The translations under genes were made by a program, and so were the position numbers. The notes under the pieces were generated by a model that ran no database searches, was not told the DNA's origin, and worked only from the letters and a program-made list of their open reading frames with translations. From NCBI GenBank assembly GCA_002831545.1, contig CP025095.1:1674001-1738000 (forward strand): a stretch of DNA of 64,000 bases, written 5' to 3'. Numbering within the stretch: position 1 is the stretch's first letter; every line of letters starts with the position of its first letter. Shown here piece by piece: positions 42,741 through 49,254 of this stretch. The stretch is from Streptococcus suis. GTDB lineage: Bacteria > Bacillota > Bacilli > Lactobacillales > Streptococcaceae.

Positions 42741-42762
42741 GACACTAACATTCATTGATGCT

Positions 42763-43184
42763 AAAGCATCTAATGAATGAACGGTACTGACTATTTGGTC
42801 AGTACCTAAGTGGCTTACTACCTCGAAAAGTCGTTATTATCGAACGACTTTTCTCAGGTCGTAACTTTCACAAGTTTAGCTGTTGGCAAGCCAACTACCT
42901 AATCTACGCCAACCGCTATGAGCGGATTGGCTAGCTACCTTACTAACTTCGAAACTGAAGAAATATCGTCTTCAGTTTCTACGTGTCGCAATACACTAAT
43001 ACCAAAGCATCTAATGAATGAACGGTACTGACTATTTGGTCAATACCTAAGTGGCTTACTACCTCGAAAAGTCGTTAAGTTCGAACGACTTTTCTCAGGT
43101 CGTAACTTTCACAAGTCTAGCTGTTGGCAAGCCAACTAGCTAAGCTACGCCAACCGCTATGAGCGGATTAGCTAGCTACCTTAC
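42763..43184. repeat. 181-bp repeat in two direct copies between nrdE and nrdF
   Basis: Copies at 42763-42943 and 43004-43184 are nearly identical and offset by 241 bp; the 60 bp between them are unique. Each copy holds a string of small hairpins: GGTACTGAC/GTCAGTACC, AAAAGTCGTT/AACGACTTTT, GTTGGC/GCCAAC and CCGCTATGAGCGG. There is no coding potential. In RNA this would form about eight stem-loops between the two ribonucleotide reductase genes. Confidence 0.85.
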
Positions 43185-44267: not shown

Positions 44268-44297
44268 AAGCAGTTCAATCTGAGCTGCTTATTTTTT
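44268..44297. terminator. Bidirectional terminator after nrdF
   Basis: AAGCAG-TCA/TGA-CTGCTT stem with A-run before and T-run after, between two convergent genes. Confidence 0.75.
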
Positions 44298-44970
44298 ATA
44301 CTAAAAATACAATCATCAAATAAGAAATACCGTTGTTGAGCATATGTAGCGCAATCGGATAACGAATATCACGTTTGATCAGATAGAGCCATCCTAGATT
44401 GAGTCCCATCGTGAAATAAATCAAAAATTGAGGAAGAGTTGCTGGCATATGGACCAGACTAAATAAAGACCCCGTTACAAATAGATAGATTCCAACAGCC
44501 TTCATATCTGCCATTTTAGGGAAGAAATAGGTCGCAAAAAATCCACGGAAAATCAATTCTTCTAAAATTGGAGCAAAGATCACTACGGAGCTAAATGCAA
44601 TCAAGGGATAAGCTGATACGAATTCAATCACTAGCTTCTGATTTTCACTTTCTGGGACTGGTACAATAAATTGGAAGATAAAAAATGCAATATAGAGTAA
44701 TATCGGCCATTGAATCTTATGGAACCATGAAGCTGTCACACGATAGTCAACAGAATGGCGTGGATAGATATACTTCCATAACAGAATAATGAGCGCAATG
44801 GAGAGAACAAGACCAATTATCGCACAAATCCAAATTGTACTGTCAATCAACTGGGCAGGAATGTCTGGTATGCTTTGTAAAGTTGGTCCTACCATCAGAA
44901 AACCTGAAGCAATTTGATAGGCAACAAAGTATAGAAAAAGTAATGCAGCGTGTTTGATAAATTTTAACAT
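44296..44970 (-). CDS. CPBP-family intramembrane metalloprotease-like protein
   Basis: A 224-residue membrane protein with six or seven helices and the three CPBP (Abi/CAAX protease) motifs: LEELIFRGF near residue 140, SLVHMP near 172 and HMLNNGISY near 210. Such proteins process prenylated or small peptides, or protect against bacteriocins; which applies here is not known. It has SD GGGAGGG and ends the ten-gene XRE cluster. A second CPBP protein lies two genes upstream. Confidence 0.88.
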   Translation of the reverse strand: MLKFIKHAALLFLYFVAYQIASGFLMVGPTLQSIPDIPAQLIDSTIWICAIIGLVLSIALIILLWKYIYPRHSVDYRVTASWFHKIQWPILLYIAFFIFQFIVPVPESENQKLVIEFVSAYPLIAFSSVVIFAPILEELIFRGFFATYFFPKMADMKAVGIYLFVTGSLFSLVHMPATLPQFLIYFTMGLNLGWLYLIKRDIRYPIALHMLNNGISYLMIVFLV

Positions 44971-44979
44971 ATTCCCTCC

Positions 44980-45252
44980 CTAAAAGCTCAAGTCAACAAT
45001 ATTATCGACTCGTACCAACTTGGTTTCAAGCTTCCCATTCGCTAATTCACGAGAAATTTTAACCCATTCCTCATCAAAGCGGATTTTAGCTTTACTTCCG
45101 ACCAATTCTTTCAATAAAACTGACATCTGATTTTCTCCTTTTGTAGTTTTCTGCAACTTTTTTACCCTAGCTTGCAACTGCTTCACTTTTTTCCTATCTG
45201 ATAGAGAATTGAAAAATAGAAATCCTACTAGAATCCATAAAAATAGTTACAT
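44980..45252 (-). pseudogene. Small membrane-anchored protein with a stop at codon 2
   Basis: An ATG at 45252 with a perfect SD (AGGAGG) is followed directly by TAA, but the frame then stays open for 88 codons: a hydrophobic stretch (LFLWILVGFLFFN), a basic coiled segment (DRKKVKQLQARVKKLQK) and a C-terminal domain (MSVLLKELVGSKAKIRFDEEWVK..., ending VDNIVDLSF). The simplest reading is a one-base change from AAA to TAA. A cytoplasmic 48-residue form could still start at the ATG at 45126, which has its own SD (AAAGGAGAA), so the gene may encode a soluble short product. No known family recognised. Confidence 0.65.
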
Positions 45253-45261
45253 CCTATCCTC

Positions 45262-45951
45262 CTATATCAAGCCCAGACTTTGCATCAGAAGCATCAACAA
45301 AAATCCGAGAAGATTATTCAGACTGTGTAGAATAAGTGCATTGGTATATTTGCCAGAAATACGATAGGCTAGTCCAAGGACCAGGCCCATACCTCCGTAG
45401 ACAACCCAAGATCCGATATTGGTCGGATTGTGAATAAGTCCAAACAGAAAACTCGATAGCAATAATCCCACAATCGAATCCTTACCAAAGACTTTCCCCA
45501 TCAGAATCCCTCTGAAAAATAGTTCCTCCAAAACTGGAGCAAAGAAAACTGCAAAGAGAAATAAAACTAAGGTTGGCAAGCCTGAATTGTTGATAATTTC
45601 CTGATTGGCAGTCGTCTGACCGTATCCCTCTTCCAGCATAATCAATTGCCCACCAATTATTTTCAAACCAAACATAACGATAAAGGCGAGGACTATAAAA
45701 CCAACATTCGCACCCATCCCCCACTTCTGCTCACCTTTCCACAGACCTAATTTACCAGTCAAGATAAGACCAAGCAATACAGCAAGCAATATGAGCGCTG
45801 CAGCAATCAGCAGATTATTACCGTCAAAATTTGGTAGGGTAAACATAGCCATCTGGGTCAATACATTAAGGGCAACGACAGCTAGTCCCACTAAGAGAAA
45901 CTTCCAATTTTTAACCACATTCCAATCTTTGACATTTCCAAGTCTATTCAT
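45262..45951 (-). CDS. CPBP-family intramembrane metalloprotease-like protein
   Basis: A 229-residue membrane protein with about seven helices and the CPBP motifs LEELFFRGILMG near residue 143, FGLIHNPTN near 175 and LILHSLNNLLGF near 208. I set the start at 45951 (MNRLGNVKDWN), where GAAGGAG precedes the ATG; a frame starting 12 codons upstream has no SD and overlaps the previous gene. It differs substantially from the other CPBP protein of the cluster, so they are not a recent duplication. Confidence 0.88.
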   Translation of the reverse strand: MNRLGNVKDWNVVKNWKFLLVGLAVVALNVLTQMAMFTLPNFDGNNLLIAAALILLAVLLGLILTGKLGLWKGEQKWGMGANVGFIVLAFIVMFGLKIIGGQLIMLEEGYGQTTANQEIINNSGLPTLVLFLFAVFFAPVLEELFFRGILMGKVFGKDSIVGLLLSSFLFGLIHNPTNIGSWVVYGGMGLVLGLAYRISGKYTNALILHSLNNLLGFLLMLLMQSLGLI

Positions 45952-45976
45952 AGCAATCTCCTTCACATACACTAAG

Positions 45977-46162
45977 TCAGTTTTCATTACTTTCTTTTTC
46001 GATCAATAGCAGAGCTGGCAAGCCCAAAACCATCGGCAAGAGGATATTCAGATTTGACAAATCAATCTGCCCAGTAGCCAGCCATTCTCCGAAAATATAG
46101 TCAACTGCGTACAGACCAAGACCGATTAATAGGACAAGATAAATTTTCTTAAAGAATTTCAT
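45977..46162 (-). CDS. 61-residue membrane protein
   Basis: A small protein with two hydrophobic segments (about residues 7-23 and 42-55) and a charged C-terminus (IEKESNEN). The ATG at 46162 has a strong SD (TGGAGGT). It lies between the DUF3278-like gene and a CPBP gene in the XRE cluster. No family recognised. Confidence 0.75.
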   Translation of the reverse strand: MKFFKKIYLVLLIGLGLYAVDYIFGEWLATGQIDLSNLNILLPMVLGLPALLLIEKESNEN

Positions 46163-46181
46163 GAGTTGACCTCCATCTAAA

Positions 46182-46691
46182 CTAAATAAGTTTGATTTTC
46201 TTACGGTTGACAATATTGAAACTAAGGAATCCAACAAGAGTCAGCAGGATAACTGTCATAGGAGTGACAAACTGGAAATACTCCGCTGCAGATGTTCCAC
46301 TTTCCTGTGGAATTTGTGACTGCCAGAGGCCGATACTGACTAGCAAACTCAAAACGGCAATCTGTAGGGTTTGAAACAGAGTTCGTTTCATCATTTTCTT
46401 CCGAGCCAATTTCACATCAGCCTTGGCAACCACCAATTTATCTAGACCCAACTGTTTGATAATGGCGTCCTGTTTGAATTGAGAATAAACCAATGTCAAG
46501 AAGAGGCTGATTCCCATGACATCTTCTCCCAGCGCAAAGCTAACTAGGAAGCTCACCAGTGTCACTGTTATAAAGAGCATATACATATTGTTGCCGAAAT
46601 TTGTCAAGGCCGCATAAGACACCTCGTCTAACTCACCAACAATATCATAGAAATAACGAATTGCTCGAATGTGTAGATTTTCCTTTTTCAT
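46182..46691 (-). CDS. DUF3278-like membrane protein
   Basis: A 169-residue protein with four membrane helices (pairs near residues 35-75 and 105-160) and a basic C-terminus (NRKKIKLI). It resembles DUF3278 proteins, which are commonly found next to XRE regulators in lactic acid bacteria; function unknown. The start at 46691 (MKKENLHIRAIRYFYDIVG) follows AGGTG at 7 nt. The opening segment HIRAIRYFYDIVGELDE is amphipathic. Confidence 0.72.
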   Translation of the reverse strand: MKKENLHIRAIRYFYDIVGELDEVSYAALTNFGNNMYMLFITVTLVSFLVSFALGEDVMGISLFLTLVYSQFKQDAIIKQLGLDKLVVAKADVKLARKKMMKRTLFQTLQIAVLSLLVSIGLWQSQIPQESGTSAAEYFQFVTPMTVILLTLVGFLSFNIVNRKKIKLI

Positions 46692-46722
46692 AGCTATCAC
46701 CTAAAACTCTTTCATAACATTC

Positions 46723-47481
46723 TTATTTGAAGTAACGACGAACCATGCGAACCTGCATGACATTGATGTAAATATGTAAAAATGCAACAACTAGAAAGGC
46801 TGTAATTTGTCGCTCTTGCAATAGCATACTGAGTACAAATAGGAATAGATACAAACCTGGCAAAACAATTTGATTCAGAGTGAAAACGATTTGAAAACTC
46901 ATTTCGTAGTTAGCTTGTTTTTCTCCCTCATCCATAGCCTCCATAAAATCCTTCACCTCTTTTACCGTAGCAAATACAGACAACTTATATTCACGAATTT
47001 TCTGAGTTAATTTCATGATAAAAATCTGAGAAATGAGAAGAATGACATAGAAAACTGCATCAAATATTGACCCGTACATGAGTGCCCCCTTTTCTAAGAA
47101 GGTAACTCCAAAACCTAATCCTAAATTTAAAAGAGTCAATGACGCAGCAACATTGAAAGATATGTTCGCGTATTCTAGGTTACGAAACATTTTCATATAT
47201 GTCTCATCAACATGTTCTTCATCCTCATCTGAAATAGAATGGTAAAGTTTATGAGTTTGGTTAGCCTTAAGAATAAAATATACGGTTCCAGCGAAAATGA
47301 CAAAAGTAACGATACGCAAACAAAATAGAAAGTTATCTAGATTGACAAAAGACGGTAATCCAAACTTAGAAATCAATACTCCAAAAAAGCCATAAAATGC
47401 ACCGAAAATTGCTCCTAAAAATAAATAGGTAAGATTCCTCATCCATCTTTGTTTTGTCGTTAATTGTTTCCCCTGTTTCAT
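46723..47481 (-). CDS. DUF3169-like membrane protein
   Basis: A 252-residue protein with six hydrophobic segments arranged in pairs and a cytoplasmic middle part (ISDEDEEHVDETYMKMF) and late loop (DFMEAMDEGEKQANYEM). It resembles DUF3169 proteins, again typical neighbours of small XRE regulators. Its start overlaps the regulator stop by 4 nt, so the two are translated together, which suggests a functional pair such as membrane sensor and DNA-binding protein. Confidence 0.75.
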   Translation of the reverse strand: MKQGKQLTTKQRWMRNLTYLFLGAIFGAFYGFFGVLISKFGLPSFVNLDNFLFCLRIVTFVIFAGTVYFILKANQTHKLYHSISDEDEEHVDETYMKMFRNLEYANISFNVAASLTLLNLGLGFGVTFLEKGALMYGSIFDAVFYVILLISQIFIMKLTQKIREYKLSVFATVKEVKDFMEAMDEGEKQANYEMSFQIVFTLNQIVLPGLYLFLFVLSMLLQERQITAFLVVAFLHIYINVMQVRMVRRYFK

Positions 47482-47693
47482 TCTTCTACCTCCACTAATT
47501 GAAAGACATTCTCCACATTTTCATTAAAAATTTGAGCAATTCGCATGGCAATGACCACCGAGGGCGTGTACTCCCCCCGCTCAATCAAACTAATGGTCTG
47601 CCGCGAAACTTCTGCTAATTTTGCCAACTCAGTCTGGTTGAGGCTATCTCGTGCCCGCAATTCCTTGAGCCGATTTTTTAAGACATATTCCAT
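47478..47693 (-). CDS. XRE-family transcriptional regulator
   Basis: A 71-residue Cro/CI-type DNA-binding protein. The helix-turn-helix is TELAKLAEVSRQTISLIERG at residues 21-40, and the short C-terminal tail (NVENVFQLVEVEE) is typical of stand-alone regulators of this group. It lies in the middle of the cluster, 12 nt after the DUF3267-like gene and overlapping the DUF3169-like gene. The repeated TTGTCAAA sites at the cluster promoter are its likely targets. Confidence 0.9.
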   Translation of the reverse strand: MEYVLKNRLKELRARDSLNQTELAKLAEVSRQTISLIERGEYTPSVVIAMRIAQIFNENVENVFQLVEVEE

Positions 47694-47705
47694 GTTGTTT
47701 CCTTT

Positions 47706-48260
47706 CTAGGCTTGGTAGATAATCAAGCTCTTTTCTGTTACAGCTACTTCTACCGCTACCTCTTTGAATTTTGCCATCAGTAAATATGTATAATAGAAAT
47801 CACCAATACAAGCCACTGAATGCATGGTTGCTAGAATCTGATAAGCCCCTTTATCAAGCCAACCAAACATTGCAGATGCTGTCAACCCCAAACTAATAAG
47901 AACGAAGGGGGCAAGGGCAATTACAACTGTTTGGAAACGATTATAAAGGGAGTTGGGACTGATTGCATAAGCCATCCCTGTTTTCCATTTAATTCCATAT
48001 TTGACTGGATTTTTGGGACAAAAAATTTTAAAAAACAGTCCATGAATCCATTCATGCATGATAATAAGCAATAGAAAAACAAATAGTGCTTCTATAAATT
48101 GCAACTCATTCATGACATTTTGAAACTCAACTTTAGAAGCTATGAATCCAAATAGCCAAAAGAACGGAAACACTAATAAAATTGTAGTTACATACAACCT
48201 TGCTGCCAACTTTTTATCGCTTCTAACATCTACTTCGTATAATTTCTTTTTATTTTCCAT
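47706..48260 (-). CDS. DUF3267-like membrane metalloprotease candidate
   Basis: A 184-residue protein with four or five hydrophobic segments and a zinc-protease-like motif HEWIHG near residue 67 (HExxH), followed by NRFQTVVIALAPF and, later, GDFYYTYLL. This matches DUF3267-type putative zincin membrane proteins. It is the third site-2-like or CPBP-like enzyme candidate of the cluster. Substrate unknown; the tiny membrane peptides encoded just before it are possible substrates, by inference only. Confidence 0.75.
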   Translation of the reverse strand: MENKKKLYEVDVRSDKKLAARLYVTTILLVFPFFWLFGFIASKVEFQNVMNELQFIEALFVFLLLIIMHEWIHGLFFKIFCPKNPVKYGIKWKTGMAYAISPNSLYNRFQTVVIALAPFVLISLGLTASAMFGWLDKGAYQILATMHSVACIGDFYYTYLLMAKFKEVAVEVAVTEKSLIIYQA

Positions 48261-48282
48261 TTTTCTTCTCCTTCTATTTCAC

Positions 48283-48387
48283 CTAGCTCAAACTCAATAA
48301 ACCTAGAGCAACTCCAATCAATAATCCGACAATACAGGCTCCTGCAATCATAATCGCTGCCATATCTGCTGAAATGTATCGTTTCAT
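48283..48387 (-). CDS. 34-residue membrane peptide
   Basis: Too short for usual gene finders but with an excellent SD (AAGGAGA, 6 nt) and placed between two coupled genes. It starts MKRYISADMAAIMIAGACIV and continues as one hydrophobic glycine-rich helix to the end. The GxxxG-like spacing (AGACIVGLLIGVALG) suggests helix packing. It could be a bacteriocin-like peptide, a toxin or a small subunit of the neighbouring membrane proteins. Confidence 0.7.
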   Translation of the reverse strand: MKRYISADMAAIMIAGACIVGLLIGVALGLLSLS

Positions 48388-48400
48388 GGTCTATCTCCTT

Positions 48401-48598
48401 CTACTTATTTCCTTTTTTCTCCATTTGTAAACTTGCTTCGATACAAGCAATTGAAGCAATTATAGTAGTCATTAGAGCTGTATCCATATCGCTCCATCCC
48501 AGCAAATCAGAAAGAAGAATGTAAGCCAATAACAGAATGGACCCTATTTCGACTGCACGCGCAACGGTTGTTCCTGTAATCATAAAGGATTGTTTCAT
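48401..48598 (-). CDS. 65-residue membrane protein, first gene of the XRE cluster
   Basis: Two hydrophobic segments (about residues 15-33 and 40-57) separated by the acidic turn GWSDMD, and a charged tail QMEKKGNK. The SD AAGGAG lies 7 nt before the ATG. It is the promoter-proximal gene of the cluster and is followed after 13 nt by the 34-residue peptide gene. No family recognised. Confidence 0.75.
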   Translation of the reverse strand: MKQSFMITGTTVARAVEIGSILLLAYILLSDLLGWSDMDTALMTTIIASIACIEASLQMEKKGNK

Positions 48599-48659
48599 TT
48601 GGTGACTCCTTATCTGTTCATCGTATTAGATGAATCCTTTTGATTTTTATCTTGATATC

Positions 48660-48688
48660 ATTGTAACACTTCTTTTTCTTTTTGACAA
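48660..48688 (-). promoter_or_regulatory. Promoter of the XRE cluster
   Basis: TTGTCA (48683-48688), 17-nt spacer, TACAAT (48660-48665) on the minus strand. The -35 is part of the palindrome TTTTTGACAA-N6-TTGTCAAAAA, so a bound regulator would block the polymerase. Confidence 0.75.
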
Positions 48689-48749
48689 GTATCTTTGTCA
48701 AAAAAATAATAATTTTTGTCAAAAAGTTTATGAATGTTGTCAAATTGAC
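48679..48749. promoter_or_regulatory. Operator array: palindrome and half-sites at 21-bp spacing
   Basis: A perfect 10-bp-arm palindrome occupies 48679-48704. The half-site TTGTCAAA then recurs at 48695, 48716 and 48737, each exactly 21 bp apart (two helical turns). The last copy forms a second small palindrome GTCAA-A-TTGAC. The pattern is that of cooperative binding of several dimers on one DNA face. Confidence 0.75.
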
Positions 48750-48801: not shown

Positions 48802-49254
48802 TTATTCCAAGTGATCCACACCAGCTTGCATTCTTTCTTCACCCCACCAGTAAGGCATGAGTTCGCCTAATGTGATGGTTTCTCGTTTGTCAAAATCAAC
48901 CATGATTTCTGTCTGTGCATTCTCAGCCGACAGTTGCATCAAAAATTCACGGCAAGCTCCGCAAGGCATTCCTGAACCTTCTCCAAAGGGAGCTTGATCT
49001 CGAAAAGCAATAATGCGTTTTATCGCTGTTTGACCACTATCCTGAAACATATTAAAGGCAGCTGCTCTCTCTGCACAAAGATGAAACACACCTGCTGTTG
49101 CCTCAAAGCAATAACCGGTGTAAATTTGTCCATCTTCTGCCTCAATTGCAGCAACAACATGGTTTGAATAAATAAAAGGCGAAACATAATGCGGAGCATA
49201 GTGGACTTTTGCCTGATTATACAACTCTTGCCAAATATCACTTACATGTTCCAT
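48802..49254 (-). CDS. cdd: Cytidine deaminase family protein
   Basis: A 150-residue zinc deaminase of the cytidine/blasticidin-S deaminase fold. The zinc ligands and catalytic Glu are in HLCAERAAAF near residue 60 and PCGACREFL near 97. It is slightly longer than classical Cdd and has a more aromatic C-terminus (YWWGEERM), so the true substrate might be another cytosine derivative. It is followed by a terminator, and the XRE cluster promoter lies 20-90 bp further. Confidence 0.85.
   Translation of the reverse strand: MEHVSDIWQELYNQAKVHYAPHYVSPFIYSNHVVAAIEAEDGQIYTGYCFEATAGVFHLCAERAAAFNMFQDSGQTAIKRIIAFRDQAPFGEGSGMPCGACREFLMQLSAENAQTEIMVDFDKRETITLGELMPYWWGEERMQAGVDHLE

What the first reader, a model, noticed from the sequence alone, without database searches (positions are those of the whole stretch)
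44296..48749. Ten-gene XRE/CPBP/HExxH cluster of small membrane proteins: best candidate for an undescribed system
One promoter drives a 65-residue and a 34-residue membrane protein, an HExxH membrane protein, a 71-residue XRE regulator, DUF3169-like and DUF3278-like proteins, a 61-residue membrane protein, two CPBP proteins and a small anchored protein. Three putative intramembrane proteases beside tiny hydrophobic peptides suggest peptide production, processing or immunity. Seen: gene order, motifs, coupled starts. Known: CPBP proteins act in bacteriocin immunity and peptide processing. Inferred: the system role.
Basis: partly seen in the sequence, partly recalled or inferred. Interest (0 to 1): 0.8.

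Follow-up and report, generated by a model that had tools for sequence, protein, structure and literature searches.

The report
Streptococcal membrane-stress operon run by AyrRA
A set of small membrane-protein genes in a pig streptococcus looks like one operon under a switch related to a staphylococcal alarm for jammed protein secretion, but with predicted membrane-cutting proteases where the staphylococcal version has a pump.

Summary
The ten-gene cluster is real and looks like one operon, but its control pair is not undescribed. The XRE protein and the DUF3169 protein beside it are homologues of AyrR and AyrA, the repressor and membrane relay that sense stable, uncleaved signal peptides in Staphylococcus aureus. 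An inverted repeat with perfect arms, TTTTGACAA-N6-TTGTCAAAA, covers the -35 box of the promoter. It is the only such site in this genome, occurs (<=1 mismatch) in 149 of 197 congeneric genomes and tracks DUF3169 (147 both, 31 neither, 19 discordant). In two of seven loci of a second family it lies exactly on the position of a published S. aureus operator mutation. The outputs differ from ayrRABC: an S2P-type DUF3267 protease, two CPBP proteins, tiny hydrophobic proteins, DUF3278 and a degenerate Sm-fold protein; no ABC transporter. Related loci swap outputs (ABC, CPBP, HExxH, PspC, tiny hairpins). Best reading: an AyrRA-switched membrane-peptide or secretion-stress operon answering with intramembrane proteolysis. 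The switch is well supported; substrates and the role of the tiny proteins are inferred. No bacteriocin gene was recognised, and TMcin membership fails. New variant of a known kind.

The parts
48680..48703 (.). Operator: inverted repeat TTTTGACAA-N6-TTGTCAAAA, both arms perfect; presumed site of the XRE repressor
48660..48688 (-). Promoter TTGTCA-17-TACAAT; the -35 box lies inside the right arm of the operator
48401..48598 (-). p10: 65-aa hydrophobic protein, two hydrophobic segments
48283..48387 (-). p9: 34-aa hydrophobic peptide, one hydrophobic segment
47706..48260 (-). p8: DUF3267 (PF11667), predicted S2P-type metalloprotease, H69-E70-x-x-H73 and D154
47478..47693 (-). p7: 71-aa XRE protein, AyrR homologue
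46723..47481 (-). p6: DUF3169 membrane protein, AyrA homologue, DEGE at 184-187, start overlaps p7 by 4 nt
46182..46691 (-). p5: DUF3278 membrane protein, 169 aa
45977..46162 (-). p4: 61-aa hydrophobic protein
45262..45951 (-). p3: CPBP (Rce1-like) putative intramembrane protease, EExxxR/FxxxH/HxxxN present
44980..45186 (-). p2: degenerate allele of a membrane-tethered Sm-fold protein; an internal ATG at 45126 with a Shine-Dalgarno remains
44296..44970 (-). p1: second CPBP protein, motifs present
44268..44290 (.). terminator-like inverted repeat between p1 and nrdF

Best explanation
An AyrR-AyrA-switched membrane-peptide / secretion-stress operon. Step 1 (strongly supported by sequence, not assayed here): the XRE protein p7 binds the inverted repeat on the promoter and holds the whole operon, itself included, nearly silent. 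Step 2 (inferred by homology to S. aureus AyrA): the DUF3169 membrane protein p6 detects hydrophobic peptides that accumulate in the membrane, such as uncleaved or stable signal peptides, and disables p7. Step 3 (inferred): the derepressed operon makes an S2P-type DUF3267 protease and two CPBP proteases that cut the offending peptides inside the membrane, with the tiny hydrophobic proteins as cofactors, gates or sacrificial substrates. This stands in the place of the ABC extractor that the same switch drives in staphylococci; some streptococci have another ABC transporter there. When the peptides are cleared, p7 shuts the operon again.
Confidence: 0.6

Rival explanations
1. Immunity or resistance operon against foreign membrane-inserted bacteriocins: the same AyrRA switch senses the intruding peptide, and the proteases and tiny proteins destroy or block it.
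For: CPBP proteins serve in bacteriocin immunity elsewhere (recalled); the set of tiny genes and of outputs varies between strains and species, as in arms races; streptococcal versions can carry ABC and PspC.
Against: Many of the suis-type loci lie at one chromosomal site, between alaS and nrdF (named by length and eye); the tiny families show dN/dS below 1 (0.2-0.55); no bacteriocin protein recognised among the ten, though no dedicated search was run; PADLOC gives only generic HTH hits and two marginal ones with no matched stretch.
Confidence: 0.2
2. A TMcin-like RiPP cluster: the 34- or 65-residue peptide is a transmembrane precursor cleaved by the DUF3267 protease.
For: DUF3267 protease TmcP and a two-TM escort TmcE act on a membrane precursor in TMcin (PMC13252029).
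Against: The two conserved cysteines of TmcA are absent (p9 and p10 have one each); no ABC transporter or DsbA-like protein among the ten; 'XRE' and 'CPBP' do not occur in the preprint's main text.
Confidence: 0.06
3. A general envelope-stress operon in which the DUF3169 protein reads bilayer state rather than peptides; proteases and PspC-type proteins tune the membrane.
For: A PspC-domain protein (PF04024, 48.3 bits) sits in the block in 27 of 80 named loci and 16 of 83 genus loci.
Against: The one studied AyrRA responds to preproteins with stable signal peptides through AyrA (PMC5727409); no PspC in the suis-type operons mapped.
Confidence: 0.14

Closest known systems
AyrRABC of Staphylococcus aureus (Cro/CI-ABC operon; Craney & Romesberg 2017, Morisaki 2016)
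   Same: Small XRE repressor directly followed by a DUF3169 relay with D-E(a/g)E; autogenous operator, whose sequence recurs at the published operator position in two loci with the ayrRABC gene order; operon layout
   Different: No ABC transporter here; instead DUF3267, two CPBP, tiny hydrophobic proteins, DUF3278 and an Sm-fold protein; the operator lies about 1.0 kb ahead of the repressor gene, so three genes precede it
TMcin biosynthesis (tmcA/P/E/B/C/D)
   Same: A DUF3267 protease beside small membrane proteins
   Different: No two-cysteine precursor, no ABC transporter or DsbA-like protein in the operon; XRE-DUF3169 switch
CPBP/Abi bacteriocin-immunity clusters (recalled)
   Same: CPBP proteins with EExxxR, FxxxH, HxxxN beside small hydrophobic proteins
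   Different: No bacteriocin protein recognised; XRE-DUF3169 switch

Membership tests
AyrR-AyrA regulatory pair | Small XRE repressor similar to AyrR | tested here: met
AyrR-AyrA regulatory pair | DUF3169/PF11368 protein with D-E(a/g)E | tested here: met
   91.4 bits; DEGE 184-187
AyrR-AyrA regulatory pair | ayrA immediately downstream of ayrR | tested here: met
   4-nt overlap
AyrR-AyrA regulatory pair | Six transmembrane segments in AyrA | tested here: inconclusive
   overlapping hydropathy windows (eight listed); no topology model made
AyrR-AyrA regulatory pair | Operator upstream of the operon | tested here: met
   48680-48703, 18 of 18; position check in seven loci, exact in two
AyrR-AyrA regulatory pair | Derepression through AyrA on signal-peptidase inhibition | not testable with these tools
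   needs an experiment
Complete ayrRABC operon | AyrBC ABC transporter in the operon | tested here: not met
   no ABC protein among the ten
S2P clan via DUF3267 | PF11667 with HExxH plus distal Asp | tested here: met
   76.2 bits
S2P clan via DUF3267 | S2P fold | tested here: inconclusive
S2P clan via DUF3267 | Intramembrane proteolysis | not testable with these tools
   needs an assay
CPBP / Rce1-like | PF02517 with EExxxR, FxxxH, HxxxN motifs (motifs recalled) | tested here: met
   p1 and p3
TMcin biosynthetic cluster | Precursor with a TM helix and two conserved cysteines | tested here: not met
   p9 and p10 have one cysteine each, p4 none
TMcin biosynthetic cluster | TmcBC ABC transporter | tested here: not met
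   none among the ten
TMcin biosynthetic cluster | TmcE-like two-TM escort with a three-stranded sheet | tested here: inconclusive
   p10 and p4 have two hydrophobic regions but are short; no structure was predicted for them

The most novel reading that the evidence does not exclude
AyrRA is a general bacterial alarm for hydrophobic peptides stuck in the membrane, and streptococci have wired it to a dedicated intramembrane shredder: a 4-TM S2P-type protease whose missing gate helices are supplied by exchangeable two-helix mini-proteins encoded next to it, plus two CPBP proteases. The variable mini-protein array would set which peptides are cut, so the operon would clear stalled signal peptides and could also disarm invading membrane peptides.
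Probability: 0.25. Interest if true: 0.8.

Novelty: new variant of a known kind. Interest (0 to 1): 0.55.

Why it matters
In the papers seen here, how a Gram-positive cell notices membrane-jammed signal peptides was worked out in one system of one species. This finding gives a genus-wide switch with, as a rule, one operator site per genome, an exact operator sequence, and coupling of the same switch to interchangeable outputs (ABC transport or predicted intramembrane proteolysis), with named candidate proteases and mini-proteins. It makes the suggestion of Craney and Romesberg, that AyrRA links different membrane signals to different responses, directly testable with a reporter. It may also bear on how streptococci answer signal-peptidase inhibitors.

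Tried and rejected
Bacteriocin production or immunity as the primary reading: no precursor, modification or bacteriocin-transport protein recognised among the ten; no dedicated bacteriocin search was run. DUF3267 genes without the switch in 8 of 51 genomes (L037, L038, L039, L041, L042, L043, L045, L047; two copies in L038, L039 and L043) sit among genes that look like housekeeping genes by eye; I had first taken the 260/391-residue neighbours in L038, L039 and L043 for transporter genes, but by eye they look like a nitrilase-type and an aminotransferase-type protein. TMcin: failed on cysteines and transporter. Phage defence: PADLOC hits were generic HTH matches to the XRE plus two marginal ones without a matched stretch (Csa3 0.0071, Csx20 0.0049).

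Plasmid-borne relatives of the DUF3169 protein: none found (tblastn). Foldseek with the p8 model: no significant match. Foldseek with the p2-relative model: none at E <= 0.001, best 1.2e-3 to a Gemin6/7 chain; the Sm/Hfq reading rests on the VIA second look. Orthology of the streptococcal ABC genes to AyrBC: ATPases align at 28% over 227 residues, as ABC ATPases generally may; permeases do not align and belong to different Pfam families. NCBIfam gave only hits below its cut-offs.

Limits of counting. Genes were called by my own script (ORFs, simple Shine-Dalgarno score, HMMs built from the loci), so starts and lengths are approximate, and gene names such as alaS, nrdE/nrdF and cytidine deaminase are by eye and length, from no family search. 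In the genus, 197 genomes were a sample. One search listed only part of its places; I followed 40 places without p8, chosen for diversity, not at random. The class sample (111 of 398 genomes with a match, 93 over the cut-off) was followed at 20 places. dN/dS is a mean over same-length, ungapped pairs; the 65-residue length class itself had too few distinct copies, and its 60-residue calls (later start) rest on two pairs. The 13 unlisted genomes without DUF3169 were identified by elimination.

In one search seven loci of one other family were measured: L190 and L191 have the G at -62, L194 at -63, L192 at -57; L193, L195 and L196 gave no usable position.

Papers: Craney 2017 PMC5727409, parts 1-3 of 4 read; Morisaki 2016 PMC5013292, abstract and passages; TMcin preprint PMC13252029, parts 1-2 of 5 and passages; PMC10269507 and PMC8321556, passages only (the latter was an accession-number false hit). 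PMC4432125 and PMC4542188 are not held. All other papers in the listings: listing only.
Full report
WHAT IS THERE. Ten ORFs lie on the minus strand at 44296-48598, between a gene that looks like cytidine deaminase (48802-49254; an alaS-like gene lies beyond it) and a convergent nrdF-like gene (names by eye). Gene gaps are -4 to 75 nt. A promoter-like site precedes the first gene and a terminator-like stem follows the last; the promoter scan as such is not above chance, so the promoter claim rests on its conservation, below. The genome is 2.72 Mb and the window is C1:1674001-1738000. The four loci with 97-99% DUF3169 identity are titled Streptococcus suis.

THE SWITCH. The 71-residue XRE protein (p7) overlaps by 4 nt a DUF3169 protein (p6; PF11368, 91.4 bits). 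In S. aureus this pair is AyrR-AyrA: AyrR represses its operon, and AyrA relays the accumulation of preproteins with stable signal peptides; the authors found ayrA homologues virtually always just downstream of ayrR homologues in staphylococci and streptococci, often without ayrBC, and named D-E(a/g)E as a conserved AyrA motif (PMC5727409). Tested here: D184, E185, E187 are invariant in 23 of 23 aligned proteins, and DE[AGS]E is in 188 of 191 DUF3169-type proteins over 200 aa. DUF3169 is in 164 of 197 congeneric genomes, and this genome has one. XRE is within 700 nt upstream on the same strand in 165 of 181 DUF3169 loci.

THE OPERATOR. Upstream of the first gene lies TTTTGACAA-AGATAC-TTGTCAAAA (48680-48703, read on the minus strand); its right arm contains the -35 box. 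At 16 or more of 18 positions it recurs within 3.5 kb upstream of DUF3169 in 72 of 83 genus loci, 73 of 80 named loci and 12 of 20 loci of other families; shuffles give 2 of 415, 0 of 400 and 0 of 100. In this genome it is unique at 0 mismatches; five other sites have 3 mismatches and the reversed control gives four. Over 197 genomes, 149 have it with <=1 mismatch, the reversed control none. Crossing with DUF3169 presence: both 147, DUF3169 only 17, operator only 2 (G110, G129), neither 31; Fisher p = 1.3e-21 (the genomes are related, so this is not a test on independent trials). In L190 and L191 the left-arm G is at -62 from the XRE start, the place of a published S. aureus mutation that wild-type Cro/CI could not complement and that the authors placed in the binding site (PMC5013292). 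L194 gives -63, L192 -57, and three other loci gave no usable value. This ties the repeat to AyrR.

COMPARATIVE ANATOMY. p8 relatives occur in 51 of 197 genomes, and in 43 of these 51 they lie with XRE and DUF3169. In those 43 blocks: p2 34, CPBP 29, 65-type protein 18, PspC 10, ABC 9. In 40 further genus loci with DUF3169 but no p8: XRE 38, CPBP 25, p2 18, ABC ATPase 10, none of HExxH/CPBP/ABC 12. Among 80 named streptococcal loci, S. pneumoniae and S. mitis included: XRE 79, CPBP 71, p2 53, ABC 29, PspC 27, HExxH 17, none of the three 8. In 20 loci of other families: XRE 19, ABC ATPase 4, none of the three 16 (all). Suis-type loci carry arrays of up to four tiny genes ahead of p8. The same switch thus sits with exchangeable outputs. 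The streptococcal ABC permease tested (L120) is PF01061 and that of L190 PF13346, and they do not align.

MECHANISM. Shown by sequence: operon-like layout, a unique conserved operator over the -35 box, AyrR/AyrA homology, protease motifs. Inferred: repression by p7, relay by p6, cleavage of membrane peptides by p8/p3/p1, a cofactor role of the tiny proteins. My probability for the whole account is 0.6; for the AyrRA switch alone I would put about 0.9.

NOVELTY. AyrRA, DUF3267 as S2P-type and CPBP proteases are known. Not found in print by the searches named (an open-licence library only): this protease-bearing streptococcal operon, its operator, and the swap of outputs. Hence a new variant of a known kind.

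Noticed in passing
window 45126 and p2 relatives in the fetched loci: p2 relatives have an internal Met-Ser (invariant in 22 of 22 aligned) preceded by AGGA or AGGAG in 68 of 72 distinct genes (a weaker GGA in the other 4; L051 lacks the Met): the gene may yield a membrane-tethered and a soluble Sm-fold protein by internal initiation.
   Followed up: partly
window 48253-48507 and L019 7651-8256: L019 carries 65-34-67-34 where the window has 65-34; the window matches the first 34-aa copy upstream (118 of 120) and the second in body and downstream (105/105, 30/30), as if by recombination between the two copies.
   Followed up: yes
window 42750-43184: A 194-bp direct repeat pair (93% alike, 241 bp apart) lies between the nrdE-like and nrdF-like genes.
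   Followed up: no
L035, L036, L067: p8 is broken or partial in three of the 51 genomes: one internal stop, one split ORF, one match of 46 residues only.
   Followed up: no
G000 outside the window: The genome has 14 CPBP (PF02517) matches in all, the two of this cluster included, with groups of two and three near 2.20 and 2.58 Mb.
   Followed up: no
L083, L095, L125, L130, L138: In some species the XRE-DUF3169 pair lies in a different neighbourhood (after 244-, 376- and 185-residue genes) with a weaker operator match (14-15 of 18); another output or a solo switch.
   Followed up: no
L037, L041, L042, L045, L047: Stand-alone DUF3267 genes in neighbourhoods that look like housekeeping ones suggest a further role of this protease family in streptococci.
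   Followed up: partly
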